This document shows positions 4,939-49,261 of a DNA stretch of 64,000 nt, piece by piece. How positions within the stretch are numbered: position 1 is the stretch's first letter; every line of letters begins with the position of its first letter. Under the pieces are notes generated by a model. It searched no databases. It had not been told where the DNA came from and saw only the letters and a list, made by a program, of their open reading frames with translations. A program made the translations under genes and the position numbers. The DNA is from a virus: positions 1 through 64,000 of the IMG/VR virus record IMGVR_UViG_3300047157_000126; one strand, 5' to 3'.

Positions 4939-6441
4939 TCACTCAACTGGCCTTCGGCTGACAATATCGTCTATTCTTAATATAGATGTCGTTACTTCTG
5001 TTGCCGAAAGCATTGCTTGTTTTATCAATTGCATAGGTTCTATAACATTCTCTTTTTCCATACTATGAATACCACCATTTGTCACATCTGGCCCGAATTC
5101 TAGATTCCCTTGCTGTACAGCGTGTCTCATAGAAAGTACTGTATCAAGTGGGTCATGTCCTGCGTTTTCAGCAATAGTGGCTGGTATAATCTCTAGAGCG
5201 TCAGCATAGGCTTCAATAGCCATTTGCGCTCTACCACCTATAGAAGCGGCATGATTTCTTAGATGTGAGGCCATTGCAACAAAAGAAGAGCCACCACCGT
5301 AAACAATACGATTTACATCTTTTACCATACCAACAACACCTAATGCATCATCAAATCCTCTTTCTACTTCATCAAGTGTGGATTGAGTAGCACCCCTAAG
5401 AATTAGAGTAGATTGGTCTGAAGATTCTGCTCCCTGAATAAATAAATAGTATACGTCATTATGTTTTTGTCTAATTATTTTAGCGTCTGAAGAATCTTCT
5501 AAATCATTTACTGTTTGTGCGACATTTAAGTTTAAAGTATTACTTAGGGCTTTCATCATACTTTCTGGTAATCTTCTTACCACACCTATATTATTTTTCT
5601 TTAGATATGCACAAATATTGTCGTGTACACCATCTCTAACGAATACTATACCTTCATCACCGATACTTTGAACAATCTTTTTTGCTTTATCTAAAAGACT
5701 ATCTTGGTTTCCTTGTTTAAATTGTGAATAAGATTCAGCATCCATTTGAATAGAAATATTTTCTTCAGTCTTTTCATTTTCAAGACCCGTATTAACTAAA
5801 ACTACTTTGGTATTCTTTTTGAAGTCAACATCTAAAACTAGATTCTTACTTAACACCACACCGTTAAAAAGATATGAATCTTCAATACTACCTCCCGGTA
5901 AACTAACAACTCTAACTTTATCTGATTCACCCGCTTTAACTACAGAATCTACACACAACTGACTGACAATATCAGTCGCTGTTTCTAGAGTTTTTCCTGT
6001 TATTGCTGTTTTTGCTATATTTTTTAGAACATCTTCATTTCCCTCAAAAGCAACATCACTTTCAAGATATTTTGAAGCCATTCTTGCTGCTTCATGATAA
6101 CCTCTACAAATTACATTTGGGTGTAGCCCTTTTTTGTACAAACTTTCGCTGTTAGTAAGTAATTGTCCGGCAAGTACTACTGTGGTGGTTGTTCCATCAT
6201 AGCACAGAGATTCTTGGGTCTTGGATATTTCTACCATCATTTTAGCACCCGGATGTGCAACATCTAGTTCTCGTAAAATTGTAGCACCATCATTTGTGAC
6301 TATAACGTTACCAGCACCATCTACCATCATTTTGTCCATACCCATTGGGCCCAGAGTACTCTTACAAGTCTCTACGATGGCTTTTGCTGCGTTTATATTC
6401 AATGCTTGCGCGTTTGCTTTTCTTGTTTCTTGTTTTTCCAT
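4939..6441 (-). CDS. Group II chaperonin (thermosome-like) subunit
   Basis: This 500-residue protein is a group II chaperonin subunit: ATP-driven folding of virion or host proteins in a double-ring cage. Visible are the nucleotide-binding 'TLGPMGMDKMM' (residues about 29-39), 'NDGATIL' (about 50), 'DGTTTTVVLAG' (about 82-92), 'GGGSS' (about 370), 'AENAGHDPLD' and the C-terminal 'EPMQLIKQA...ILRIDDI' signature. It is about 40-50 residues shorter than typical archaeal thermosomes, apparently with a reduced C-terminal tail. It lies at the end of the replication module, with a GAGGAATAA site upstream. Chaperonins occur in some marine archaeal viruses; dependence of this virus's capsid folding on it is inference. 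Confidence 0.93.
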   Translation of the reverse strand: MEKQETRKANAQALNINAAKAIVETCKSTLGPMGMDKMMVDGAGNVIVTNDGATILRELDVAHPGAKMMVEISKTQESLCYDGTTTTVVLAGQLLTNSESLYKKGLHPNVICRGYHEAARMASKYLESDVAFEGNEDVLKNIAKTAITGKTLETATDIVSQLCVDSVVKAGESDKVRVVSLPGGSIEDSYLFNGVVLSKNLVLDVDFKKNTKVVLVNTGLENEKTEENISIQMDAESYSQFKQGNQDSLLDKAKKIVQSIGDEGIVFVRDGVHDNICAYLKKNNIGVVRRLPESMMKALSNTLNLNVAQTVNDLEDSSDAKIIRQKHNDVYYLFIQGAESSDQSTLILRGATQSTLDEVERGFDDALGVVGMVKDVNRIVYGGGSSFVAMASHLRNHAASIGGRAQMAIEAYADALEIIPATIAENAGHDPLDTVLSMRHAVQQGNLEFGPDVTNGGIHSMEKENVIEPMQLIKQAMLSATEVTTSILRIDDIVSRRPVE

Positions 6442-11976: not shown

Positions 11977-12347
11977 TCTTCTTCCTCCTGTGAAATATAC
12001 TCAACTGATGCATTACAGGAAGAACAATGTAAGTGTGTCACTATACCTTCTTCACCCATCAAATCTTCTTTATCGTGGTCTGCTTGCCAAATCAATTGAC
12101 CTCCACACCACCAGCAAACATCTCTTTTATTTTTGTCCATTATTGATGTGACAATAAGACTACTTTTTTCATGTTTAGATATCAGTTTCTGTAAGTAGAC
12201 TGTCAAATCCATAGCCTCTTCTTGAGCGTGTGTTAACCATTCTGGTATAGTCAAGTCCTCTCTTTCCATAGTAGTACCATATTTGTTTTTCCCAACTTCT
12301 GCTCTTTTCATTATTTTTTTACATACTTCATCTTCTATTTTACTCAT
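11973..12347 (-). CDS. MazG-like helical domain fused to a zinc ribbon
   Basis: Start taken at 12347, where ATG overlaps the polymerase stop (TGATG). Residues 1-60 ('TIPEWLTHAQEEAMDLTVYLQKL') resemble the metal-binding helices of MazG-type nucleotide pyrophosphohydrolases found in marine viruses. Residues 70-124 are a zinc ribbon, 'CWWCGG...HCSSCNASVEY', that occurs elsewhere as a separate small phage protein; an internal ATG at its start could allow separate expression. The acidic tail EEEE overlaps the next ribosome-binding site. Likely nucleotide-pool control; moderate certainty. Confidence 0.6.
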   Translation of the reverse strand: MSKIEDEVCKKIMKRAEVGKNKYGTTMEREDLTIPEWLTHAQEEAMDLTVYLQKLISKHEKSSLIVTSIMDKNKRDVCWWCGGQLIWQADHDKEDLMGEEGIVTHLHCSSCNASVEYISQEEEE

Positions 12348-14749
12348 CACCAATACACCTCCGGCACTGCTATACTAGCATCAACTTTATCTAAATCCCA
12401 TCCTAATGTTTGATAGACAGGCTTGATTTTAGCCATTATGAATTTTTGTACTATTGTTTCATAGTCAACAGAATAATCAGATATCTCATCTGGTTTTCTA
12501 AACGCTATTACATTTGCTTTAATTTCCTTATGGAACTTTACAAAGTGTGACTTTCCTTCTGGTATTTCTTTGATGAATATCCATTGTGCACCATCTCCGG
12601 GTTTAAATGGGTCTATTGTAGTAATGTTTTCATTGTAATTCTTAGCGGCTCTAACTTGCATAGGTATGTTAGATTTATATTCACTAAATGGTCTTTTTAT
12701 TCTTCCGTAAGGGCTTAATTTTTGAACAGGATATTCACCATTTAATACCGCTTTGGTAATTGGTCTAAGAGCATTGGTTACTTCATCTTCTTCTGCACCA
12801 TTACCTACTAGATTGAATAGAACTGATTGGACTTCTTTTGTTATTGGTGCAGCGTTAGCCGCTTTTAGTTCAAAACCTGTTACTTTCATTTTACCCTTAT
12901 CTGATTCAGGATAGGTTTTAATTCCGAAATATCTATTCTTTGTTTGGGCGCTTATCCAATAGTCAAAATACGCCTCTAGTTCCACATCCATGTATGGCAT
13001 ATCTAGTTGCTTTTGTGCCTCTTTTGTTAGATGCTCCGCTAGTGCTTCTGCTTCCTCTAAAGGGACTTGTATAAAGGCTGAATCGGTGTGACCGTACAAC
13101 CCCTTGTAACCTTGCTTTTCACTTTCAGCAAGTAGGAATCTAATACTATCTCTACCCATGTGGGTAATTGTTTTTCCAATATCTAAATCGGACCACATAC
13201 CACCAATCTTACCCATGGAAACCATTCCGTATAGAGCGTTGACTGCAACTTTAGTAGCAGTCTGTAGCATATCGTACCCAAGTTTTTCATCGGGATTTGT
13301 AGCAGCATACATTTTCTTTTTGTATTCTTTTCTTAGAGCAAGCATTTCAGACACAACGCTTGGGAATAACCCTTGTTCTGACTGGTCCCAGTGTGTCCCA
13401 TTACCGGGTGATTTGATATTTTCACCCGGACCATCTCTTTTAGTAGTCCAACATAAGTTTAAACTGAGAATTATATTTGGATATAGAGAAGCGTAATCAA
13501 ATAACCCAACACCTATATGTCTACCAGAAATAGGGTCAGGAATATATGCCGCTTGTAAGTCTTCTCTATTCTGAGCCTTTGAACTAGGTGCTTTCAACTC
13601 GGTCCTACGAGCGATTAAGCCTCTAAAATATCTAGTAACTTTATTTGTACTAGGGAAAGAAACACCACATAGTTTCATCATGGCGACATGAAATTCTACA
13701 GCATGTAGTTTCTCATCTACATCTCTTAACAAAGTGGTATCAACTAAACAATAGTCTACGAAGTCATCAAAATATTCATACCAACCATTGAAAACAGTCA
13801 TACCTTCTATTCTATCTGTAAGTTTTTCACCTAACTCAAGACTTTGTGCTACCCAATTTAATGAGCGACTAGACATCTGTCCTCTACCTGATTTTTGCCA
13901 TATAGACTCAAAACCACTACCAGACATACCTCTAGCGGCACTGTCAAAAACTAGTCTCCCTTTGATGGGTTGAGCAGTTTCTTTGTACCCCGATTCTTTC
14001 TTTGGGACTAATACTTGGTTAATAGGACTCATACGATTCGGGTCTGCTAATCTCCTGTGTAGATGAGGGAAATCTGCCCAATTACCTGCATGAGCGACTA
14101 ATATGTCAGGATTTCTTTCATCCATATAATTAAGGAAACCTTCGTGCATATCGCTTTCATTATCATATAAATGTAGTAAATATCCACCTTCTCTATCTAC
14201 CAGTGTGGTTTTTATTTCCGCTTCGGGTTTCCAAGCAAATACCATAGGGGTTTCATCTTGATTATCAACTACAGCCATGACTGTTGTGAAATCTTCTTTT
14301 GGGTCCCACTCTAAATCGAAATACCATATTCTAGGATTAAAATCAGGAATACCATCGGGGTATTTTTGTATAATATATTGGTCTACAAAACTTAAATCTG
14401 CTTCGTAAGTGTAAGGGTATTCTTCTTTTATATCCCATAAATTACCGGGGTGGTTTACTGTCAACTTGATTAGTGGATAGCCATCTAATCCTACTGCTGT
14501 TTTAGATTTATCAAATTTAGCACCGGGATATCTGCTAACAATTTTATTCATTTGCCACTGTGGTATATCTGCTCTTACCCAACATGAAGGAAATATGTAA
14601 TCATCATCTTCAGAAGTGATTATTCTTTCTTTTAAAACCCCATCTAGACCTCTTGTTCTCTCATAAAGGAACGGTGCCTCATCATTATGTACTAGACCCT
14701 TGTGAGTCTTTAGATACGCACCACTAGGGTAAAAGTAGTCTACTATCAT
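12347..14749 (-). CDS. polB: Family B DNA polymerase
   Basis: This 800-residue protein is the replicative polymerase. The exonuclease domain has 'FDLEWD' (Exo I, about residue 142), 'HAGNWADFPHLHRR' (Exo II variant) and 'YCLVDTTLL' (Exo III). The polymerase domain has motif A 'DYASLYPNI' (about 417), motif B 'KVAVNALYG' (about 503) and motif C 'YGHTDS' (about 552). In motif C the usual first aspartate (YGDTDS) is histidine; the second, which is the metal ligand in this family, is kept, so activity is expected. It would work with the adjoining clamp gene. Confidence 0.95.
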   Translation of the reverse strand: MIVDYFYPSGAYLKTHKGLVHNDEAPFLYERTRGLDGVLKERIITSEDDDYIFPSCWVRADIPQWQMNKIVSRYPGAKFDKSKTAVGLDGYPLIKLTVNHPGNLWDIKEEYPYTYEADLSFVDQYIIQKYPDGIPDFNPRIWYFDLEWDPKEDFTTVMAVVDNQDETPMVFAWKPEAEIKTTLVDREGGYLLHLYDNESDMHEGFLNYMDERNPDILVAHAGNWADFPHLHRRLADPNRMSPINQVLVPKKESGYKETAQPIKGRLVFDSAARGMSGSGFESIWQKSGRGQMSSRSLNWVAQSLELGEKLTDRIEGMTVFNGWYEYFDDFVDYCLVDTTLLRDVDEKLHAVEFHVAMMKLCGVSFPSTNKVTRYFRGLIARRTELKAPSSKAQNREDLQAAYIPDPISGRHIGVGLFDYASLYPNIILSLNLCWTTKRDGPGENIKSPGNGTHWDQSEQGLFPSVVSEMLALRKEYKKKMYAATNPDEKLGYDMLQTATKVAVNALYGMVSMGKIGGMWSDLDIGKTITHMGRDSIRFLLAESEKQGYKGLYGHTDSAFIQVPLEEAEALAEHLTKEAQKQLDMPYMDVELEAYFDYWISAQTKNRYFGIKTYPESDKGKMKVTGFELKAANAAPITKEVQSVLFNLVGNGAEEDEVTNALRPITKAVLNGEYPVQKLSPYGRIKRPFSEYKSNIPMQVRAAKNYNENITTIDPFKPGDGAQWIFIKEIPEGKSHFVKFHKEIKANVIAFRKPDEISDYSVDYETIVQKFIMAKIKPVYQTLGWDLDKVDASIAVPEVYW

Positions 14750-27549: not shown

Positions 27550-28293
27550 TCATTTCTTTATATAGAATCCTTCTTCTTCTTCACACAAGAAGCAAAGGTA
27601 TTCTCCCTTGTCACTTATTGACACATAATCATTGCAACCTAAGCAAGTAAAGTAACCCTTACTTTTTTCTTCTTTATCCCATTTTGTTTCCTTGAAATCA
27701 TCAATCCAAAAACCAGCATTGTATTTCGATGCTGATACTGACGGGAATAATGATTCACCCAACGGTAAATCACACATGTCAGCAACATACTGTTGTTGTT
27801 TTTCTGTCTCTACTTCGTGTACACACATTCTCTCTCTTACCCACATGATGAGTTCGGCTGAATCCTTCCATTTCTTTTTATCATCAGGAATCAATAGATG
27901 AGCAAGGATTGCTAACTGTACCCCCGTTCTTCCATGTCCACCAACACATTGACAAGAAATAGTTTTTACATCATTATCATAGATATCCTGTATTAAATTA
28001 TACCAGTCTGTTTTATCAAAACTTGTTGGTATGTTATAGTCAGGCCAATTGATAGGAATTATTACCGTCTCTGTTTTTTCGTATCTGTCTGATGTAACCC
28101 AACCATCAGGTATGTTATGAGGTGCATATCTCAACACCACATCACTAGGCCCAATAGCAAGGTCAGGTTCGGGTGTCATTCTGTACCAACAACCATTCCT
28201 CGATGAACCCCCACCGTAGACTTTTATTCCATCTTCTGTTTCAAACACCAGTATATTACCAGTGTGGCAATTATTTTTACTCATATTGTACAT
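27550..28293 (-). CDS. Protein tyrosine/dual-specificity phosphatase-like with zinc ribbon
   Basis: Product of 247 residues. The PTP loop 'CVGGHGRTG' (residues about 114-122) matches C-x5-R-[ST], preceded by a hydrophobic strand ('KTISCQ'), and an aspartate-bearing loop lies upstream. Residues about 215-240 form a zinc ribbon, 'CLGCNDYV...CFLCEEE'. It could remove phosphate from host proteins, or act on nucleotides or RNA ends. It starts 1 nt after the PEP-swivel gene, so the two are translated together, which hints at phosphorylation-linked functions. Confidence 0.7.
   Translation of the reverse strand: MYNMSKNNCHTGNILVFETEDGIKVYGGGSSRNGCWYRMTPEPDLAIGPSDVVLRYAPHNIPDGWVTSDRYEKTETVIIPINWPDYNIPTSFDKTDWYNLIQDIYDNDVKTISCQCVGGHGRTGVQLAILAHLLIPDDKKKWKDSAELIMWVRERMCVHEVETEKQQQYVADMCDLPLGESLFPSVSASKYNAGFWIDDFKETKWDKEEKSKGYFTCLGCNDYVSISDKGEYLCFLCEEEEGFYIKK
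27553..27570 (-). promoter_or_regulatory. Conserved TATA cassette, copy 3
   Basis: As the other copies except for C in place of T at the last base. 25 nt before the ATG at 27528, with AAGGAGATGA between. It overlaps the end of the phosphatase-like gene, which reads it as 'GFYIKK'. Confidence 0.75.
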
Positions 28294-41359: not shown

Positions 41360-41866
41360 GTGTCTGCATTCAACAAAGCATGGTCTGTTCTCAAAATGAC
41401 CGAAATGCCGATGGGAGGAGATGTACCGCCACAAGAGTCTTATTCCCACAAAGATTTGGATGCTGAGGCACTCATAGATTTCTTAATCCAAAATCTGGGA
41501 ATGGATTATCAAGAGGCGAAAACCCTTGTTACACACCACAAAACCAAGGAAATGGGTGAAAAATCTCGTAAAAAGCCTCCGAAAGACAATGGTGGTGATA
41601 TGTCCATGTCCCCTATGATGCCTATGGCTAAGGCAATGGATTTTCTCAAGGGTCGTGGGGATTTTAGAATGCGGAATGTGAAAAAGCCGCAAGTTCAAAC
41701 AAGAACTCCTGCTGATGTAAATCAGATGGATTACAATGAACTAACGCCAGATGAACAATTAGAAAGGCGCAGAAACAAAGTTAATTCTTATGAATCTGAA
41801 TACGCTAGAAAAAATCGAGAAGAAAAAGAAAGGCTTGCTCGTGAAATGGGAGAGGGTCAACAATGA
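41360..41866 (+). CDS. Tagged protein with FNxAWxxLK leader (first late gene)
   Basis: Starts at GTG 41360. The leader 'MSAFNKAWSVLKM' is followed by an acidic segment and a UBA-like helical patch 'LIDFLIQNLGMDYQEAKTLV' (residues about 36-55), then a long Lys/Arg/Pro/Met-rich disordered tail. It opens the plus-strand module and overlaps the 14-residue ORF downstream by ATGA. Function unknown; the leader suggests the same destination as the other tagged proteins. Confidence 0.62.
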   Translation: MSAFNKAWSVLKMTEMPMGGDVPPQESYSHKDLDAEALIDFLIQNLGMDYQEAKTLVTHHKTKEMGEKSRKKPPKDNGGDMSMSPMMPMAKAMDFLKGRGDFRMRNVKKPQVQTRTPADVNQMDYNELTPDEQLERRRNKVNSYESEYARKNREEKERLAREMGEGQQ

Positions 41867-41907
41867 CAGCGTTTGAAACAGCATGGCCTCTTTTAAAAGC
41901 CTACTAA
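41863..41907 (+). CDS. 14-residue ORF consisting only of the leader motif
   Basis: ATG 41863 overlaps the previous stop (ATGA). The frame encodes MTAFETAWPLLKAY and stops at 41907. It contains nothing beyond the shared motif. It may be a free peptide made for its own sake, the remains of a deleted tagged gene, or an acceptor for new payloads. Confidence 0.55.
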   Translation: MTAFETAWPLLKAY

Positions 41908-41940
41908 AATAAGATAAAATAAACAAGGACATTGATTAAA

Positions 41941-42396
41941 ATGACAGCATTTGAAGCAGCATGGGATATATTAAAAAGCAATACACTAGAAAAACAATCA
42001 TATCATCCAGCAATTCATGGTTTGATGAATAGAAAAAGACTTGCTGATGCTTTTAATGTTGATATGGATGAAGATTTTGAAGGTCAACATTACGGTTCAG
42101 TTGAAGAGCCTTATACAATGTATGATGATGAAGTACCAACTATGCCTAATTACGAAGATGTAAAACACTTAGCAAATAAACCCTCATATTTCCAACCTAG
42201 TGATTTTGTAGATGAAGCACAAGGTATGGGTTATGAGCCGAAAGGTGCTAGTGGGCCTAATTCACTTAGAGCCGCAGAACAATCAGGTGAATTAAAAAGA
42301 CAATCTAGAGGTTTAGCGACTAGAGATGCGGAAGCAAGAAGAAGGCAAGGAGATTTTAGAAATTATCCTAAGTTTGATTACGGGGCAAATATTTAA
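41941..42396 (+). CDS. Tagged hypothetical protein
   Basis: Leader 'MTAFEAAWDILKSN' (start at ATG 41941; an in-frame TTG at 41932 adds three residues). The remaining 138 residues are acidic then basic and largely disordered ('ESPYTMYDDE'-type middle, 'RGLATRDAEARRRQGDF' near the end). No domain recognised. TAATG overlap with the next gene. Confidence 0.62.
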   Translation: MTAFEAAWDILKSNTLEKQSYHPAIHGLMNRKRLADAFNVDMDEDFEGQHYGSVEEPYTMYDDEVPTMPNYEDVKHLANKPSYFQPSDFVDEAQGMGYEPKGASGPNSLRAAEQSGELKRQSRGLATRDAEARRRQGDFRNYPKFDYGANI

Positions 42397-42605
42397 TGAC
42401 AGCATTCAATGAAGCGTGGGATTTTCTCAAAGCAGACCCCATTGATATGCACGAATATCCCCCCGGTTCAGGTAATTTTATGTCTTTACAAGACATGATA
42501 ATGGCTAGAAACGCAGATGCTCGCAAAAATATGCAAAATATGACTCCAAAACCTAGACCAACAGGAGGTAACACGTATGACAAAAGACCTTCAGGTTGGC
42601 AATAG
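42396..42605 (+). CDS. Tagged small protein
   Basis: Product of 69 residues: leader 'MTAFNEAWDFLKAD', then Pro/Met/Asn-rich disordered sequence. Its 3' end overlaps the next gene by 29 nt and contains that gene's AGGAGGT ribosome-binding site. Confidence 0.6.
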   Translation: MTAFNEAWDFLKADPIDMHEYPPGSGNFMSLQDMIMARNADARKNMQNMTPKPRPTGGNTYDKRPSGWQ

Positions 42606-43107
42606 ACCCTTCGACCAAGCGTGGATTGTACTCAAAGCGCCAATTTATGAGACACCAATATCTAATATTAATTTTCTAACTGGGAATCGAGAAGATTATG
42701 ATAATAATGAAGAGATTTTTGGTGGAATGTACCCCGAAGATAAAAGAAGAGACCACATACAGCAAATGACACCTAACGAGTATCTTAGTCGAACGCCCAA
42801 AACTTCACACCCTAATCTTGGAGGATGGTTTGAAGAAAAAATAAAACAGGCTATTGAAAATAATCAAAAATTAAGATTAGGTATGCCATGGGTTCAATAT
42901 GACCCAAACATTACAGACCCGAAAGACCGTGATTATAGACTAAACTCACATGATGGAAGAAATAGAATGGCCGCTATGCAAAAACTTGGGCATGGAGATA
43001 CTGAGTTTCCTGTAAGAGTTACACACTGGCCCCCTAAAAGGCAATTAACAATGCGAGAACAATTAGAAGAAGCAAAAAGAAGAGTAAAGGGTGGGGGGTT
43101 TTTATGA
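42577..43107 (+). CDS. Tagged protein with ParB-like HDGR motif
   Basis: AGGAGGT precedes ATG 42577. The leader is shifted inward: 'RPFDQAWIVLKAP' at residues 10-22. Residues about 85-160 resemble the ParB/sulfiredoxin-like fold: 'NSHDGRNRMAAMQKLG' (about 122-137), then 'FPVRV'. In such proteins this motif binds nucleotide or acts as a nuclease or kinase. Enzymatic activity here is unproven. ATGA overlap with the next gene. Confidence 0.6.
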   Translation: MTKDLQVGNRPFDQAWIVLKAPIYETPISNINFLTGNREDYDNNEEIFGGMYPEDKRRDHIQQMTPNEYLSRTPKTSHPNLGGWFEEKIKQAIENNQKLRLGMPWVQYDPNITDPKDRDYRLNSHDGRNRMAAMQKLGHGDTEFPVRVTHWPPKRQLTMREQLEEAKRRVKGGGFL

Positions 43108-43841
43108 ATCCCTTCGACCAAGCATGGCTCTTACTCAAGGAAGAAGAGGTTAGATATCATCCACAAGATGAACCTATGAGTGTTGAAGATATGGAATCAT
43201 ATTATGATGTAACTGAACTTGGACAAATCGCAGGTGAAAAACCGATGGCAGGGGATATATCAACGGGCGACACAAGAGAAGATAGAAAGAAACAAACAAA
43301 GGTTTTTGGACAAACATTTCGTGGTAAGCCTACATTCAATCTGATGCCTTTGGCTGGTGAAAACCGGGCTATGGTGAATCCAAATGCTGAAATCTTTAGG
43401 CGTAGTGAGATGAACCCCTTAGACCAAGCATGGGCTTTGCTCAAGAATGATGACGATGAGTTCAAACAAGCGGCTTACGGAACTTGGTATGAAGATGACT
43501 GGGCAGATAAAATGCCGGAGGATTTCGACTTTGATGCTTTTGATGCTGAAGATTATGATGAGGAGATACATAGAGAATATCCGACTGGACAAGTAGGTTA
43601 TAATCCGGGTATGAAGGATTTGCGGAGGTCGCAATACAATCCTTGGGAAAGTTCCGAAGAGAATGAGAAGCGATTTAATGATTTGATAAATAATCCTACC
43701 CGCAACCCTATTATTATTGTGAGAGATAAAAACGGAGAAGAGCACATTATCTCCGGTCATCATAGGATGGCGGCAAACATTGAAGCCGGAAGGCCACATC
43801 TCCCCGCTTTAGTTTTGAATATGATGAGGAATCAACAATGA
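43104..43841 (+). CDS. Doubly tagged protein with ParB-like GHHR motif
   Basis: Product of 245 residues. The leader occurs twice: 'MNPFDQAWLLLKEE' at residues 1-14 and 'MNPLDQAWALLKND' at 103-116, so it looks like two tagged genes fused in frame; the internal ATG at 43410 could be a start. Residues about 195-240 contain 'PIIIVRDKNGEEHIISGHHR' followed by 'MAANIEAGRPHLPALV', the ParB-like signature. The region between is acidic and disordered. ATGA overlaps on both sides. Confidence 0.65.
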   Translation: MNPFDQAWLLLKEEEVRYHPQDEPMSVEDMESYYDVTELGQIAGEKPMAGDISTGDTREDRKKQTKVFGQTFRGKPTFNLMPLAGENRAMVNPNAEIFRRSEMNPLDQAWALLKNDDDEFKQAAYGTWYEDDWADKMPEDFDFDAFDAEDYDEEIHREYPTGQVGYNPGMKDLRRSQYNPWESSEENEKRFNDLINNPTRNPIIIVRDKNGEEHIISGHHRMAANIEAGRPHLPALVLNMMRNQQ

Positions 43842-44770
43842 ACCCCTTCGACCAAGCATGGTCTCTGCTGAAGGCTCCGATTTATGAAGCACCTTCCACA
43901 TTTGAAGAAGGTGATTGGCCTAATTATTCTGATTCACTAGGGCAAGATGATAGATTTACAATGTTGCCTAACCTAGAAGAAATGGGAAAACCGTACATGT
44001 GGGAATCTGAAGATGGTAATGCAAGGGGCACAATATATCCTGATGATTTTAGAAACTCGATAAAAATAGATAATTTTGAATTAAATAGTGATGTTAAAGG
44101 TCAAGGTAAAGCAAGAAAATATCTTGAAGATTTTATTGAAGAAGGTCAAGATTATTTTATTGATAATGATGGTTTTCTTCTTGACGGAGTACATGTTACA
44201 AATGTAGAACATGGTGCGACGGGTTTTTGGGATAAAATGGTTGATGCGGGTGTGATTGATGGAGCACATTCAACAGGCTACATTAGAACTAATATCGCTG
44301 GTGATGAACATTACACTCACGCTTATGACGATAAAAAGCAACCTTGGTCACATGAATTAAATCCTGAATACGCTGAATATCATGGTTTACCAACAGATGC
44401 TATTTATGACCAATTCGTAGAAAAAGCGTATGAATATCACGGAACCGTAGATTTACCTAGCGTTTTACAACACGGAATAAGAGGTGGAAGTCCTAAAACT
44501 CGTTCAAAACGTTATGTGCCAGAATCTCTAAGAGCAGCAGATTTAGTGAATTATACAACTACAGACCCAGAAGCGGCACTAAGATTTGCACAAGAAAGGG
44601 CAAGAAGAACAAAGCAAGACCCTTCAAAAGTAGGAGTTGTGCGAATGAAAACAGCAGATTTACCTGAATATGTAGAGCATCAAGAGCCAGATTATGGTGA
44701 TTTACAAGGTGGTATGAGTAGAGTTCGTCAAGGTTCAATACCCCCAGAAGTATTACAGCAGTGGTCTTAA
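43838..44770 (+). CDS. Tagged GNAT-like plus ADP-ribosyltransferase-like protein
   Basis: Leader 'MNPFDQAWSLLKAP' at residues 1-14. Residues about 65-145 look like a GNAT acetyltransferase: 'FELNSDVKGQGKARKYLEDF' with a Q/R-x-x-G-x-[GA]-type acetyl-CoA loop (about 84-92) and 'VHVTNVEHGATGFWDKM'. Residues about 198-310 resemble ADP-ribosyltransferases: 'YHGTVDLPSVLQHGIRGG', 'YTTTDPEAALRFAQERA', 'VGVVRMKTADL' and 'RQGSIPPEVL'. Both are fold-level assignments from motifs. Such enzymes modify host proteins or RNA polymerase in other viruses (T4 Alt is injected with DNA). Confidence 0.6.
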   Translation: MNPFDQAWSLLKAPIYEAPSTFEEGDWPNYSDSLGQDDRFTMLPNLEEMGKPYMWESEDGNARGTIYPDDFRNSIKIDNFELNSDVKGQGKARKYLEDFIEEGQDYFIDNDGFLLDGVHVTNVEHGATGFWDKMVDAGVIDGAHSTGYIRTNIAGDEHYTHAYDDKKQPWSHELNPEYAEYHGLPTDAIYDQFVEKAYEYHGTVDLPSVLQHGIRGGSPKTRSKRYVPESLRAADLVNYTTTDPEAALRFAQERARRTKQDPSKVGVVRMKTADLPEYVEHQEPDYGDLQGGMSRVRQGSIPPEVLQQWS

Positions 44771-44878
44771 TACAAATATACCTACTATTATCAGCCCTAC
44801 CATAAGTGAAATAACTGATTTTCGAATTGTTTTGCGTATTTGTCCCCGTAAAAGGTCATTAAAAGCCTCATGAACCAT
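44753..44878 (-). CDS. Antisense small membrane protein (41 residues)
   Basis: On the minus strand a 41-residue frame starts at 44878. It has an amphipathic N-terminus ('VHEAFNDLLRGQIRKTIRKS') and one transmembrane helix ('VISLMVGLIIVGIFVL'). A TATA box lies 22-34 nt upstream, shared with the divergent plus-strand gene. Its end overlaps the ADP-ribosyltransferase-like gene by 18 nt. The protein pattern is convincing for its size. Confidence 0.5.
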   Translation of the reverse strand: MVHEAFNDLLRGQIRKTIRKSVISLMVGLIIVGIFVLRPLL

Positions 44879-44899
44879 GTAAAACGCGACTACGACGGG

Positions 44900-44912
44900 T
44901 TTATTTATAAAG
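44900..44912. promoter_or_regulatory. Bidirectional TATA element
   Basis: TTTATTTATAAAG reads as a TATA box on both strands. It lies about 27 nt from the ATG at 44933 (plus) and about 28 nt from the ATG at 44878 (minus), which are archaeal distances for leaderless messages. Neither start has a good ribosome-binding site, in agreement with leaderless transcription. Confidence 0.55.
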
Positions 44913-44932
44913 CATACCTGCGATTACTACTG

Positions 44933-45124
44933 ATGAGTACCACTCCTGAACCTTTTACTGAGGCTTGGCAAGTGCTAAAAGCGTACCCGCCGGAATCAAA
45001 TTTTACTGTTGAAGAAAAACAAATTGTTATGTCAACAATTTTGAAGATGATGATGAGTGGTAATACTCGTCTAGAAGAGGAGGCTGGATTGCTTTTCCAG
45101 CGATATGCTAATTTACGACAGTGA
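44933..45124 (+). CDS. Tagged small protein
   Basis: Start at 44933, giving 'MSTTPEPFTEAWQVLKAYPP' with the leader motif at residues 8-17. The remaining residues form a helical hairpin ('FTVEEKQIVMSTILKMMMSG', 'LEEEAGLLFQRYANL') like those of small viral regulators. 63 residues. Own TATA box, probably leaderless. Confidence 0.62.
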   Translation: MSTTPEPFTEAWQVLKAYPPESNFTVEEKQIVMSTILKMMMSGNTRLEEEAGLLFQRYANLRQ

Positions 45125-45137
45125 GTTCGCACACCCC

Positions 45138-46058
45138 ATGAGTGACCCAGTAACAATTTATGAAGTGGGTCCAAGAGACGGTTTACAGTCTATTTCTAAA
45201 GAAGTTCCTACTGAGCAAAAAGCGTATTTAATTGATATGTTAATTGCAGCGGGATTGGATAAAATAGAAGTTGGAAGTTTTGTGAATCCCGCTTTGGTAC
45301 CTCAAATGAAAGATACCGCACTGGTTTTAAAGGGAATAAATCAAGAAGATAATCAAATTTCAGCATTAGTCCCAAACGCAAAAGGTTTAGAATTAGCAAA
45401 AGAAGCGGGTGTGAATCTCTTCAATATCTATCTTTCACCTTCTCCAGAGTTCAATACCCGCAATTTAGGTACTCCAAGTATTGATAGAATACTAGAAAGA
45501 TATGAAGTTGCTCTAGAGGAGGTTTTTCCTGAACAAGTGAGGTTATACATTTCTTGTGCTTTTGGTTCCGCTTTCGATGATTATGATGAGTCTCTTTTTA
45601 TTCAAATCTTAAAATGGGGGGCTGAAAACTCTTCCACAATAGTTTTAGCAGACACTACAGGAATAGCAACTCCAAAAGAAATTACCACCGTGGTAAAAAT
45701 TGCCCGCGAAATTATGCCAAATTTAGCCATTCACCTTCACAAGCCTAGTAGTAGGAAGGTTGAATTTTCGCATTTACTGGATGCTGCCTACTTATCCGGT
45801 ATTAGGGAGTTCGATACTTCTTTGGGTGGTTTAGGTGGTTGTCCTTTTGTTCCGGGTAGTTTTGGTAATTTACCAACTCGGTATTTAATTGACTGGGCTT
45901 CGGATTACGGAATTGAAATTGAACAATCTGTAGATATTGCAAAATTAGAGGCTGCTGAAATGTACCTAAAAGGAATTGTTAATATTCCGATGGCTGAAAG
46001 AGCCTATATTTATGTTTCAGGAAAACTGAGTGGTATTCGTAGAAGCCTTATCTCTTAA
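45138..46058 (+). CDS. Hydroxymethylglutaryl-CoA lyase homologue
   Basis: A TIM-barrel lyase of the HMG-CoA lyase/DRE-TIM family, 306 residues from ATG 45138 (an in-frame ATG at 45105 would overlap the previous gene). Residues seen: 'EVGPRDGLQS' (about 9-18) with the catalytic Arg and metal-binding Asp; 'LADTTGIATP' (about 170); the H-x-H metal ligands in 'HLHKPSSRK' (about 198-206), where the usual D-T-x-G after them is lost; 'GGLGGCPFVPGSFGN' (about 230-244) with the catalytic Cys and metal-binding Asn. Family role: cleavage of HMG-CoA to acetyl-CoA and acetoacetate. As a viral gene it would be an auxiliary metabolic gene; the changed loop may mean another acyl-CoA substrate. Confidence 0.88.
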   Translation: MSDPVTIYEVGPRDGLQSISKEVPTEQKAYLIDMLIAAGLDKIEVGSFVNPALVPQMKDTALVLKGINQEDNQISALVPNAKGLELAKEAGVNLFNIYLSPSPEFNTRNLGTPSIDRILERYEVALEEVFPEQVRLYISCAFGSAFDDYDESLFIQILKWGAENSSTIVLADTTGIATPKEITTVVKIAREIMPNLAIHLHKPSSRKVEFSHLLDAAYLSGIREFDTSLGGLGGCPFVPGSFGNLPTRYLIDWASDYGIEIEQSVDIAKLEAAEMYLKGIVNIPMAERAYIYVSGKLSGIRRSLIS

Positions 46059-46403
46059 CATCTGACGAGTTTCAGCCGCTAACTGTCCGTACCTTTCATC
46101 TTTTTCTGTCAATTTGGTTTTTTGATTGCCAATTTCTCCTGACATTCTCCCTAACCCGAAAGACGGTACCCCAAATGTCGCTCCGGTTTTTGCTGCGCCT
46201 GAAACCCCAACTTTACCTGCTCCTGATGCAATTGATGGCACACTACTAGCGGCAGTTGTTGTCATAGCACCTCCACCAATTGTTCTTGCTGCGCCACCTG
46301 CTACGTGTTTTCCACCTTGTCCAAGAACCATAGGAATAAATCTACTTCCTGCTGCCGCAACAAAAGGTATAGCAGGTGCAGCCTTGACTAGAACATAGCC
46401 CAT
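46017..46403 (-). CDS. Gly/Ala-rich antisense protein, possibly membrane-associated
   Basis: Start at ATG 46403, behind GGTGGT. The 128-residue product has a hydrophobic N-terminus ('MGYVLVKAAPAIPFVAAAG'), a Gly/Ala/Ser/Thr-rich middle, and a charged helix 'KLTEKDERYGQLAAETRQML' at the end. Its composition is unlike a random antisense frame. A frame on the opposite strand (46126-46398, Pro/Ala-rich) is its shadow. It converges on the lyase gene, overlapping its last 42 nt. Confidence 0.5.
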   Translation of the reverse strand: MGYVLVKAAPAIPFVAAAGSRFIPMVLGQGGKHVAGGAARTIGGGAMTTTAASSVPSIASGAGKVGVSGAAKTGATFGVPSFGLGRMSGEIGNQKTKLTEKDERYGQLAAETRQMLRDKASTNTTQFS

Positions 46404-46456
46404 TGAAACCACCCAATCAGCGAAATGGTAAAAGTGTTCTGCTTGTCTCGAATACT

Positions 46457-46693
46457 GTGATTGAACCAGCCGACATCATAGATGACCTCTTAAAAGGTCA
46501 ATTCGGATATGCTGGTAAAAGTTACATTTCTGACCGACCAAAAAAGCAAGCAAAGGCTAAAGTTCAACGATTAGCCCGGAAGGTTAAAACCCGAAAAACC
46601 AAAGCGAAGTACGCAAGACAGGTATCGCGAGGAGTACAAAGACCAAAAATGCGTAAACAAACTGGTTTAGTTAGAGTATCAAGGAGTAGATAA
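46457..46693 (+). CDS. Very basic small protein
   Basis: The start is uncertain: GTG 46457 gives 78 residues; TTG 46403 would add 18. After a short acidic helix ('EPADIIDDLLKGQFGYAGKS') the rest is packed with Lys and Arg ('KVQRLARKVKTRKTKAKYAR'). DNA- or RNA-binding by composition; could condense DNA in the capsid. Followed 1 nt later by a tagged gene. Confidence 0.5.
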   Translation: MIEPADIIDDLLKGQFGYAGKSYISDRPKKQAKAKVQRLARKVKTRKTKAKYARQVSRGVQRPKMRKQTGLVRVSRSR

Positions 46694-46694
46694 A

Positions 46695-46988
46695 ATGGAC
46701 GCATTTGAAATGTCATGGAACTTATTAAGAAAAGCATGGTATGATTCTGTAGATGATAGACATAGAGAGCAACCTTTTGATAGAAATGATGATTTTGCAC
46801 CTTTTACAACTAGAGCAGAAAAAATGGCCGCTGCGAGGTTACACTCACAAGCAATGCGCCAAGATAATGAGCCAACAGGTACACCGCTAGATGATTATGA
46901 TGAAGTTCCACAAGATGAATTTGCTAATATGTCTAAAGATAAATTAGTGGCTATGGTTAGAAGAATGATGCAAGAAAAGGAGATGTAA
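46695..46988 (+). CDS. Tagged hypothetical protein
   Basis: Leader variant 'MDAFEMSWNLLRKAW' (Ala to Ser and Lys to Arg). 97 residues, acidic and helical, ending 'LVAMVRRMMQEKEM'. AGGAGTAG precedes the ATG; its end carries the AAGGAGATG site of the next gene. Confidence 0.6.
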   Translation: MDAFEMSWNLLRKAWYDSVDDRHREQPFDRNDDFAPFTTRAEKMAAARLHSQAMRQDNEPTGTPLDDYDEVPQDEFANMSKDKLVAMVRRMMQEKEM

Positions 46989-46990
46989 GT

Positions 46991-47326
46991 ATGCGTGAAG
47001 AAAAAATGGACGGAAAAAAGAAAAAGAAAGGAATGAGTTTAGTAATTGCTGTTACTCCACCTTCTCCTAAATCACCACAAGACACAGCGACACCCGAAGC
47101 AATGAAAAAAGCCTTTGAGTTTTTGAAAGATTACAACCAAATGGGAGTTGGTGCTGGTGCTGCTCAAGGAATGAATCTACAGGCTATACGTCAAAAAGTT
47201 CACGAAATGGACGCAAGAGCGCAACAAATGATGGCTACTGACCCACACGGTGCTTCACAAATGCGAGCAGAAGCGGATTATTTAGCAAACCAACTTCAAG
47301 AAATGATGAATGCTCGAAGACAATGA
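46991..47326 (+). CDS. Helical hypothetical protein (111 residues)
   Basis: A short Lys-rich start (residues 1-14), then two long helices with 'PEAMKKAFEFLKDYNQMGVG' and 'QAIRQKVHEMDARAQQMM'. 'KAFEFLKDY' only faintly recalls the leader motif. AAGGAGATGTAAGT provides the ribosome-binding site. No family. Confidence 0.55.
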   Translation: MREEKMDGKKKKKGMSLVIAVTPPSPKSPQDTATPEAMKKAFEFLKDYNQMGVGAGAAQGMNLQAIRQKVHEMDARAQQMMATDPHGASQMRAEADYLANQLQEMMNARRQ

Positions 47327-47335
47327 GGGGGTTAC

Positions 47336-48223
47336 ATGTTTTCCGATATAATGGTGAATTATATCTTAAAAGATGAAAATACCCTTTTAGAGCCTCCAGA
47401 AGTAAATACTTCAAAATTACCACCAGAGTTTTTTGCAGGGCACGCTTCTGAAAGATTGAGTGACCCTCTTCGTATGCATGATGAAAATGAAAGTGCAGAA
47501 GTAAAAACTAGAACTATACAAGGTTTAGTTGATGCTGGAATTATGGGACCTTTAGGTAATTATACAAAAGATGCACCTAGACATGTAGCAGTTAGAACAC
47601 ATTTTCTAGATTCTTTTAGAAATCCCATTGGGGTTAATGAAAAAGGACAACGACATTCAACTGGTAATACTATTGTAAGTATTGTAAGACCTCATAAAAA
47701 ACATAGAACCCCTCAAGTAAAAACTGTAATGCTTAGAGGTAATCATCAAAAATTTGGAAGAGGTGCTGGTCCGGGTACGATGAATGTAGACCAAGTTATA
47801 GACGCCTCACCTGAAAAAATAAATACAAATAATCCGCAAGTCGCAATAAGAAGAGCGAGAAAAGCAAAAAAGAAAAAAGCAGCAAGAGTAAGAATCCTAC
47901 CACCTGTACTACCCGGTCCGGGTTCAACTAGACCATTGGTTAAAAAAATGGTTCTAATTAAAGCACCAAAAAGAAAAATGTCTGAAGCGGCCAGACAACA
48001 TAAGTTGGCCTATGATAAAAAATACGAGTCTAGTCCTGAAAGAGTGAAATATCGAGTAGATTTGAATCGTGAGCGTAGACGCAGGGGTATTTATGGTTCG
48101 AATAATAAAAAAGATATTAGTCATACTCAAGGTGGAAAGTTTACTTTAGAAAACCAAAGTAGTAATAGGGCTAGGCATTTTAAAAATCGAGGCACACTTC
48201 GCAAGGTTAAGGTGAAGAAATGA
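47336..48223 (+). CDS. Basic protein of unknown function (295 residues)
   Basis: Residues 1-160 are mixed; residues about 165-235 are Lys/Arg/Pro-rich; the C-terminus has a compact motif 'YESSPERVKYRVDLNRERRR' followed by 'RGIYGSNNKKDISHTQGG', which I have seen in short marine phage proteins, without known function, and which suggests nucleic-acid or ribosome contact. ATGA overlap with the next gene. Confidence 0.55.
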   Translation: MFSDIMVNYILKDENTLLEPPEVNTSKLPPEFFAGHASERLSDPLRMHDENESAEVKTRTIQGLVDAGIMGPLGNYTKDAPRHVAVRTHFLDSFRNPIGVNEKGQRHSTGNTIVSIVRPHKKHRTPQVKTVMLRGNHQKFGRGAGPGTMNVDQVIDASPEKINTNNPQVAIRRARKAKKKKAARVRILPPVLPGPGSTRPLVKKMVLIKAPKRKMSEAARQHKLAYDKKYESSPERVKYRVDLNRERRRRGIYGSNNKKDISHTQGGKFTLENQSSNRARHFKNRGTLRKVKVKK

Positions 48224-48390
48224 ATAGTTGCGATTGTGGTCATTGTGTGGGTATGGACACTGTTTGGAAGAAACTCTGTCCTGAAGGAAAAGCGGCAGCA
48301 AAAAGAAAGTTCAAAGTTTATCCATCCGCTTATGCTAATGGGTGGGCTGTACAATATTGTCGTGGTAAGTTTAGGGGGAAGAAAAAATGA
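48220..48390 (+). CDS. Small protein with YPSAYANG motif
   Basis: 56 residues. The second half 'KVYPSAYANGWAVQYCRGK' is a motif common in marine viral proteins (DUF5872-like); 'CDCGHC' at the start and a later Cys may bind zinc. ATGA overlaps at both ends. Function unknown. Confidence 0.65.
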   Translation: MNSCDCGHCVGMDTVWKKLCPEGKAAAKRKFKVYPSAYANGWAVQYCRGKFRGKKK

Positions 48391-48548
48391 AACTTAAGAA
48401 AGATAAATGTTGTTGCGGTGGTACTAAAAAAACACCTTGTGTTTGTATGATTGAGGGTAATCAATGTTCAGTATCTTCTCCTAAGTGTCCTTGTTATGCT
48501 TTGATAGACAAGCAAAAGAACATTAAGAAAATGGTAGGCATTCTATGA
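48387..48548 (+). CDS. Cys-rich microprotein (53 residues)
   Basis: Eight cysteines in 'CCCGG...CVCMIEGNQC...CPCYAL' form a compact metal-binding or disulphide core, followed by a Lys-rich tail. ATGA overlaps on both sides. Function unknown. Confidence 0.62.
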   Translation: MKLKKDKCCCGGTKKTPCVCMIEGNQCSVSSPKCPCYALIDKQKNIKKMVGIL

Positions 48549-49261
48549 CACGATGTACCTGTCATGATGTACTCATTGTAAAAAACTTAAACCGTTGGTT
48601 TAAGGAAAAATGGGTAGATGTGTCACGTACTAAAGACGGAAAGCACCCACCGTGTGGTAGAAGCAAGGGAAAACTTTCAGGTAAAGGTTATCCTAAATGC
48701 AGACCTTCAATCAAAGTTTCAAGTAAAACACCTAAAACATCAGTTTCTATGTCATCAGGTGAGAAACAAGCAGCGACAAAAAGAAAACGTGCGAAAAAGC
48801 AAGGTGTGGATGGAAAACCAACAATAGTTAAGACAGACTACGCTATGCGAAGCAACATGAGTGCTTTTGATGCAGCGTGGAGTGTGTTGAAATCAAATAC
48901 TCTTCCTATTAGACCTAAAGTTATGCAATACGCAACCGACCAAAAGAAAACCATGAGATTAGAGCAGCCGGGTGGTGTCGCTCGAAGTGCTAGAAGAAAA
49001 CTAATGGATGAAACTCAGGCTAGAAAAAATGATAAATTTACAGATGAACCCGACATAATGAATCAGGAAGGGGATGTTCAAACTGAGTCATATGGACTGT
49101 CCCGACATGAATTGGAGGATTTACACGATGCGAGAATGACTCACGAACCTGTTTATCGTAATATGTTTTGGAACACTTTAATGAATAGGAAAGAATACGA
49201 GGCAGGTGATTTGGGACACTTTAATGAATATGATAGATTATATGAACGTGATTATGAATGA
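48545..49261 (+). CDS. DUF5872-like domain fused to a tagged protein
   Basis: Product of 238 residues. Residues 1-85, 'WFKEKWVDVSRTKDGKHPPC' followed by 'GRSKGKLSGKGYPKCRPS', are a basic domain seen in many marine viruses. At residue 105 (ATG 48857) the shared leader reappears, 'MSAFDAAWSVLKSN', with an acidic disordered payload behind it. I take this as a tagged gene captured in frame behind the basic domain. The internal ATG might be used separately. ATGA overlap downstream. Confidence 0.65.
   Translation: MTRCTCHDVLIVKNLNRWFKEKWVDVSRTKDGKHPPCGRSKGKLSGKGYPKCRPSIKVSSKTPKTSVSMSSGEKQAATKRKRAKKQGVDGKPTIVKTDYAMRSNMSAFDAAWSVLKSNTLPIRPKVMQYATDQKKTMRLEQPGGVARSARRKLMDETQARKNDKFTDEPDIMNQEGDVQTESYGLSRHELEDLHDARMTHEPVYRNMFWNTLMNRKEYEAGDLGHFNEYDRLYERDYE

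What the first reader, a model, noticed from the sequence alone, without database searches (positions are those of the whole stretch)
45138..46058. HMG-CoA lyase homologue as an auxiliary metabolic gene
Arg/Asp of GPRDGLQ, H-x-H, the GGCP cysteine and the Asn of FGN are all kept, so the enzyme should be active as a lyase, but the D-T-x-G that follows H-x-H in HMG-CoA lyases reads K-P-S-S. Archaea use HMG-CoA to make isoprenoid lipids; a viral lyase could divert HMG-CoA to acetyl-CoA and acetoacetate, stop lipid synthesis, or help leucine breakdown. Lies among tagged late genes with its own short gaps.
Basis: partly seen in the sequence, partly recalled or inferred. Interest (0 to 1): 0.78.

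Follow-up and report, generated by a model that had tools for sequence, protein, structure and literature searches.

The report
Magrovirus HMG-CoA lyase, virus-only clade
A virus of ocean archaea carries an intact-looking enzyme that splits HMG-CoA, the building block of archaeal membrane lipids; such viruses were already known to carry it, but it turns out to be an old virus-only version, passed between viruses, with one reshaped loop.

Summary
ORF 45138-46058 (+) encodes a 306-aa HMG-CoA lyase homologue. HxH, R13-D14, C235 and N244 are kept, and the D/N-T-x-G after HxH is replaced by K-P-S-S. The window is a magrovirus (tailed virus of Poseidoniales). HMG-CoA lyase as an auxiliary gene of magroviruses is already published (PMC10160649; PMC10768690), so the headline is not new. 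New here: (1) 80 viral homologues keep the full catalytic set, but none has the D/N-T that 87 of 88 cellular lyases keep, and their loop is 14-20 residues long against a fixed 16. (2) The viral proteins form one clade (100/100), rooted inside classical HMG-CoA lyases, not with isopropylmalate synthases. (3) Half of 50 terminase-matched magrovirus contigs carry the gene, on the terminase strand in 44 of 45 contigs checked. (4) Lyase history disagrees with DNA polymerase and terminase, which agree with each other, so deep virus lineages seem to exchange the gene. (5) dN/dS of about 0.06-0.1 indicates a working protein. Most likely it cleaves host HMG-CoA late in infection to acetyl-CoA and acetoacetate. 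Whether this starves lipid synthesis or finishes leucine breakdown is open; Poseidoniales genomes could not be reached.

The parts
45138..46058 (+). HMG-CoA lyase homologue, 306 aa
   Evidence: ORF; Pfam PF00682; NCBIfam PRK05692; AlphaFold2 pLDDT 92; top PDB folds all HMG-CoA lyases; dN/dS 0.06-0.11
45162..45188 (+). EVGPRDGLQ motif (E9-Q17): catalytic Arg13 and metal-ligand Asp14
   Evidence: E9, R13, D14, Q17 invariant in 80/80 viral sequences
45732..45740 (+). H199-L-H201 (HxH metal/acid-base histidines)
   Evidence: invariant in 80/80 viral and 88/88 cellular sequences
45741..45764 (+). changed loop K202-E209 (KPSSRKVE) in place of the cellular D/N-T-x-G
   Evidence: D/N-T in 87/88 cellular, 0/80 viral; length to the next conserved Gly is 16 in all cellular, 14-20 in viral (19 here)
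45825..45845 (+). GGLGGCP loop with catalytic Cys235
   Evidence: C235 invariant in 80/80 viral
45867..45869 (+). Asn244 of FGN, metal ligand
   Evidence: invariant in 80/80 viral and 88/88 cellular
44870..45124 (+). preceding short ORF with the 'AWxxLK' tag, ends 13 bases before the lyase; kept next to the lyase in the nearest subclade
   Evidence: neighbour cluster 7 (window, L096, L098)

Best explanation
The gene encodes a working HMG-CoA lyase of a magrovirus. It belongs to an old virus-only branch of the classical (S)-HMG-CoA lyases that circulates among magroviruses of Poseidoniales. As a divalent-metal-dependent TIM-barrel retro-Claisen enzyme it would cleave host (S)-HMG-CoA to acetyl-CoA and acetoacetate. 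It lies on the structural-gene strand, so it is probably made late. The most likely purpose is to divert HMG-CoA, the precursor of archaeal isoprenoid membrane lipids, back to acetyl-CoA when the cell no longer needs new membrane and the virus needs carbon and energy. Shown: family, fold, intact catalytic residues, virus-only clade among the sequences sampled, changed loop, purifying selection, strand. Inferred: activity, substrate, timing, benefit. My estimates: HMG-CoA lyase chemistry about 0.8; lipid-precursor drain as the main role about 0.4.
For: Family models prefer HMG-CoA lyase by far (197.7 bits against at most 33 for synthases). The fold model (pLDDT 92.2) matches 14 HMG-CoA lyase chains first (E 1.9e-25 to 4e-22, TM 0.79-0.85 by query), then a gap of about eight orders of magnitude to synthases. 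E9, R13, D14, Q17, E44, N109, D172, T173, H199, H201, C235 and N244 are invariant in 80/80 viral sequences. In the tree rooted with isopropylmalate-type synthases, viral sequences form one clade (100/100) inside a group with classical lyases (97/99); a 110-row tree agrees. dN/dS is 0.06-0.11 between the window and its close relatives. The lyase is on the terminase strand in 44 of 45 contigs. No HMG-CoA reductase or enoyl-CoA hydratase was found in 28 magrovirus records, so HMG-CoA most likely comes from the host. P. aeruginosa PA2011 is (S)-HMG-CoA specific (PMC6689899); the viral protein is 31-34% identical to lyases of known structure.
Against: The score is below the NCBIfam cut-off. D/N-T after HxH is lost, and the positions of human Cys174 and Glu279 read Ser and Arg. 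No activity data exist for any viral member that I could find. HMG-CoA concentrations and lyases of Poseidoniales are unknown here. Half of comparable magrovirus contigs show no such gene, some of them nearly genome-sized, so it is not essential. Late timing is inferred from strand only.
Confidence: 0.6

Rival explanations
1. It completes host leucine breakdown: host enzymes turn leucine into HMG-CoA and the viral lyase finishes the route to acetyl-CoA and acetoacetate, feeding energy and carbon to the infected cell.
For: Cellular relatives include a lyase next to an acetyl/propionyl/methylcrotonyl-CoA carboxylase gene (L015), the leucine-pathway setting. Marine Group II archaea are thought to live on proteins and fatty acids (PMC6336850). 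Xu et al. 2023 filed the magroviral gene under leucine degradation.
Against: No other leucine-pathway enzyme was found with the one model tested (enoyl-CoA hydratase family, 0 of 28 records). Presence of the upstream steps in Poseidoniales was not testable here.
Confidence: 0.25
2. The enzyme has shifted to a different 3-hydroxy-3-methylacyl-CoA or related substrate; the remodelled loop after HxH marks the altered pocket mouth.
For: Loop sequence and length differ from cellular lyases and vary between viral subclades; positions of human Cys174 and Glu279 also vary. Lyases of this fold act on several 3-hydroxyacyl-CoAs (general knowledge).
Against: All inner catalytic positions and the GLGGCP loop, typical of HMG-CoA lyases among DRE-TIM enzymes (general knowledge), are kept. 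Loop diversity within the viral clade looks more like lost constraint than one new specificity.
Confidence: 0.2
3. Non-enzymatic or vestigial gene: passenger retained by chance or with a structural role.
For: Sits among late genes; absent from many relatives.
Against: Complete catalytic site in 80/80 and dN/dS 0.06-0.11 between the window and close relatives.
Confidence: 0.04

Closest known systems
HMG-CoA lyase reported in magroviruses (Aoguangviridae, Aobingvirus yangshanense; Xu et al. 2023 AMG survey)
   Same: Same virus order, same annotated enzyme, already interpreted as modulation of host metabolism / leucine degradation.
   Different: Those papers, in the text I could read, give no active-site, loop or phylogenetic analysis of the gene. 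Xu et al. call magroviral AMGs sporadic; here 25 of 50 terminase-selected contigs carry it. The window virus has an undivided PolB, unlike the split PolB listed for Aoguangviridae.
Cellular (S)-HMG-CoA lyases: human HMGCL (2cw6, 3mp5), P. aeruginosa PA2011, B. subtilis (1ydo)
   Same: Fold, catalytic residues, GLGGCP loop; 31-34% identity to those with solved structures.
   Different: D/N-T-x-G loop after HxH replaced and lengthened by three residues; Cys174 and Glu279 equivalents changed; separate long-stemmed virus clade.
2-isopropylmalate / homocitrate synthases (DRE-TIM)
   Same: Same superfamily fold and HxH metal site.
   Different: Weak model scores and outgroup position in the tree; the viral protein is too short for their C-terminal part.
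Lyases in phage records (Acinetobacter phage MD-2021a; fecal Bacteriophage sp.)
   Same: Similar HMGL family proteins in records labelled phage.
   Different: They group with bacterial lyases and carry the usual HFHNTRG loop, so they are unrelated acquisitions or bacterial DNA.

Membership tests
HMG-CoA lyase (EC 4.1.3.4, HMGL family) | HMGL-like TIM-barrel domain | tested here: met
   Pfam PF00682 1e-18; model matches HMG-CoA lyase structures, TM up to 0.85 by query length
HMG-CoA lyase (EC 4.1.3.4, HMGL family) | Catalytic Arg, metal-binding Asp/His/His/Asn, GLGGCP cysteine | tested here: met
   R13, D14, H199, H201, N244, C235 invariant in 80/80 viral
HMG-CoA lyase (EC 4.1.3.4, HMGL family) | D/N-T after HxH (in 87/88 cellular members sampled; a usual, not a defining, feature) | tested here: not met
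   K-P here; 0/80 viral. Not among the catalytic residues I know of, and two related bacterial lyases also lack it (L269, L270), so not treated as excluding
HMG-CoA lyase (EC 4.1.3.4, HMGL family) | Score over curated NCBIfam cut-off | tested here: not met
   197.7 against 246 bits; 15 of 44 aligned rows (viral and cellular) pass E 1e-73, about that level, the window does not
HMG-CoA lyase (EC 4.1.3.4, HMGL family) | Phylogenetic placement inside the family | tested here: met
   Nested among classical lyases, 97/99, outgroup isopropylmalate-type synthases
HMG-CoA lyase (EC 4.1.3.4, HMGL family) | Cleaves (S)-HMG-CoA to acetyl-CoA and acetoacetate | not testable with these tools
   needs enzyme assay
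2-isopropylmalate/homocitrate synthase | Closer to synthases than to lyases in models and tree | tested here: not met
   18-33 bits; separate from outgroup, 100/100
Auxiliary metabolic gene of magroviruses | Virus-encoded, on a virus genome | tested here: met
   Same contig as PolB, terminase, portal; many virus contigs
Auxiliary metabolic gene of magroviruses | Derived from the host lineage | not testable with these tools
   No Poseidoniales genome could be used as a search centre

The most novel reading that the evidence does not exclude
Magroviruses share a virus-evolved HMG-CoA lyase whose remodelled loop tunes it to drain the isoprenoid-lipid precursor of their archaeal hosts late in infection, a metabolic off-switch for membrane synthesis that moves between deep virus lineages independently of their replication and capsid genes.
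Probability: 0.25. Interest if true: 0.7.

Novelty: new variant of a known kind. Interest (0 to 1): 0.42.

Why it matters
HMG-CoA feeds archaeal membrane lipids, so a lyase kept in abundant ocean archaeal viruses is a concrete, assayable handle on how these uncultured viruses reprogram their hosts. The virus-only clade and its loop signature let such genes be recognised in metagenomes without confusion with bacterial lyases. Its exchange between virus lineages that otherwise stay separate suggests it is worth keeping. The basic fact that magroviruses encode the lyase is already in print, which limits the surprise.

Tried and rejected
Placement with isopropylmalate synthase or another Claisen enzyme: rejected. 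Recent pick-up from a bacterium or host: not supported, since all viral rows form one clade with a long stem (0.78-0.99) apart from every sampled cellular lyase; the Poseidoniales gene itself is unsampled. Pseudogene: rejected by dN/dS and the intact site. Longer start at 45105: less likely, because much of that stretch overlaps the preceding ORF in another frame and homologues begin at the MSDP-type start. MAFFT first aligned the wrong His pair; the local-pair alignment puts HxH on HxH. Searches that led nowhere: PHROGs, relatives of G000, a taxon centre, named magroviruses in the phage collection, papers on Marine Group II HMG-CoA metabolism, key papers not held.

Full report
What is there. 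The ORF at 45138-46058 (+) encodes 306 aa. It scores as HMGL-like in Pfam (1e-18). In NCBIfam it scores best as HMG-CoA lyase (197.7 bits, under the curated 246), far ahead of isopropylmalate or homocitrate synthases (33 bits at most). The AlphaFold2 model built from an alignment of viral and cellular relatives has mean pLDDT 92.2. Its first fourteen PDB matches are all HMG-CoA lyases, with a gap of about eight orders of magnitude in E-value to the next family.

Which virus. The window lies in an 81.7-kb virus record. One strand carries family B DNA polymerase, an RFC-type clamp-loader ATPase, an ERCC4 nuclease, a SNF2 helicase and a TCP-1/cpn60 chaperonin; the other carries terminase and portal. 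This is the two-strand plan described for Magrovirales. Terminase homologues occur in 45 of 50 further contigs that carry the lyase, at 37-80% identity where the match is long.

Already known. HMG-CoA lyase has been reported for magroviruses, as an AMG in a 2023 survey (PMC10160649) and in the ICTV profile of Aoguangviridae as a modulator of host metabolism (PMC10768690). The discovery of the gene is therefore not new. In the texts I could read no analysis of its active site, loop or ancestry is given; several papers were not held.

The viral family. A scan of IMG/VR with a mixed alignment gave 201 relatives. The 79 loci kept are 38-99% identical to the window protein, while the best cellular proteins reach 41%. 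In an alignment of 80 viral and 88 cellular or plasmid/phage-record sequences, twelve positions are invariant in all viral rows: E9, R13, D14, Q17, E44, N109, D172, T173, H199, H201, C235 and N244. By my recollection of human HMGCL these correspond to E37, R41, D42, Q45, E72, N138, D204, T205, H233, H235, C266 and N275. The two residues after HxH are D/N-T in 87 of 88 non-magroviral rows and in none of the viral rows. The stretch from HxH to the next conserved Gly is exactly 16 residues in every cellular row and 14 to 20 in viral rows, 19 here. Two related bacterial proteins also lack D/N-T but keep the standard spacing. Less conserved in the viral clade are the equivalents of human Cys174 (Ser here) and Glu279 (Arg here; Glu in 49 and Asn in 25 of 80).

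Ancestry. A 110-row tree puts all 46 non-redundant viral rows on one side of one branch (SH-aLRT 100). A careful tree rooted with isopropylmalate-type synthases puts the viral clade (100/100) inside the group of classical lyases (97/99), on a long stem. The cellular sample has no Poseidoniales and only one haloarchaeal plasmid protein, so the donor is unknown.

Movement between viruses. For 13 long genomes, polymerase and terminase distances agree (Spearman 0.89, 0 of 2000 permutations as high). Lyase distances agree with neither (-0.16 and -0.15). Close relatives keep their lyase (for instance G014 with G011, G026 with G044). However, the lyases of G043 and G050, which are sisters by polymerase and terminase, group with G013 (100/99) and with G026/G044 (99/99) respectively (an 18-genome set without polymerase, also shows no agreement). 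The gene seems to be inherited over short spans and exchanged over long ones. It also sits in different places: between terminase and portal in some viruses, about 14 kb upstream of terminase here.

Spread, strand and selection. Of 50 terminase-selected contigs over 29 kb, 25 carry a full or nearly full-length lyase (a 26th match is a fragment); of nine of at least 90 kb, seven do. These are lower bounds because records may be incomplete. The lyase lies on the terminase strand in 44 of 45 contigs; L114 is the exception. dN/dS is 0.06-0.11 between the window and its close relatives, against 0.02-0.04 for terminase.

How it most likely works. From established knowledge of HMG-CoA lyase: the metal held by Asp, two His and Asn binds the substrate; Arg, His and the GLGGCP Cys support retro-Claisen cleavage of (S)-HMG-CoA to acetyl-CoA and acetoacetate. 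All these groups are kept. 28 magrovirus records have no HMG-CoA reductase and no enoyl-CoA hydratase family member, so the enzyme looks like a single step working on host-made HMG-CoA. Archaea need HMG-CoA for mevalonate and hence for membrane lipids, and a tailed virus has no envelope to build. Draining HMG-CoA late in infection would release acetyl-CoA and slow lipid synthesis. Finishing leucine breakdown is the main rival. Nothing here separates the two. Timing, substrate and benefit are inferences.

Verdict. Observation confirmed; interpretation partly supported; headline already published.

Noticed in passing
window 41360-48892 (+): A short peptide of the form (A/P)F-D/N/E-x-A-W-x-x-L-K occurs 12 times in plus-strand reading frames between 41.4 and 48.9 kb, mostly at or near N termini of late ORFs; random sequence of the same dinucleotide make-up gave none. 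ORFs with variants such as MDLAWRLLK form the commonest neighbour cluster of the lyase, in 24 of 46 viral loci. It could be a sorting or packaging tag; the lyase itself lacks it.
   Followed up: partly
window 43838-44770 (+): Tagged ORF whose C-terminal part (YHGTVDLPSVLQHGI...YTTTDPEAALRFA) resembles ADP-ribosyltransferase-type sequences by eye; no Pfam hit. Relatives of it lie near the lyase in 10 viral loci.
   Followed up: no
window 46017-46412 (-): Small Ala/Gly-rich minus-strand ORF overlapping the 3' end of the lyase; an ORF with the same conserved C-terminal end is present in L002 and L004 although its middle varies.
   Followed up: no
window 4939-6441 (-): Chaperonin of the TCP-1/cpn60 family (425.7 bits) with thermosome-like sequence by eye, whereas the ICTV profile lists GroEL/GroES for Aoguangviridae.
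   Followed up: no
window 12347-14749 (-): DNA polymerase B is one chain here but is found as two or more separate matches in G043, G050, G042 and G049, as in the split PolB-NTD/CTD of Aoguangviridae; this may serve as a quick clade marker.
   Followed up: partly
L009 and L010 (phage collection): HMG-CoA lyase-like genes in records labelled Acinetobacter phage MD-2021a (328-379 kb) and a fecal Bacteriophage sp. have bacterial loops and group with bacterial lyases; these records may hold bacterial DNA.
   Followed up: partly
L031 / L269 (G101, G197): Two bacterial lyases with HYHKYHG and HYHQSKG after HxH: rare cellular cases without D/N-T but with standard loop length.
   Followed up: no
window 27550-28293 (-): Weak match to dual-specificity/tyrosine phosphatases with a CVGGHGRTG motif.
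   Followed up: no
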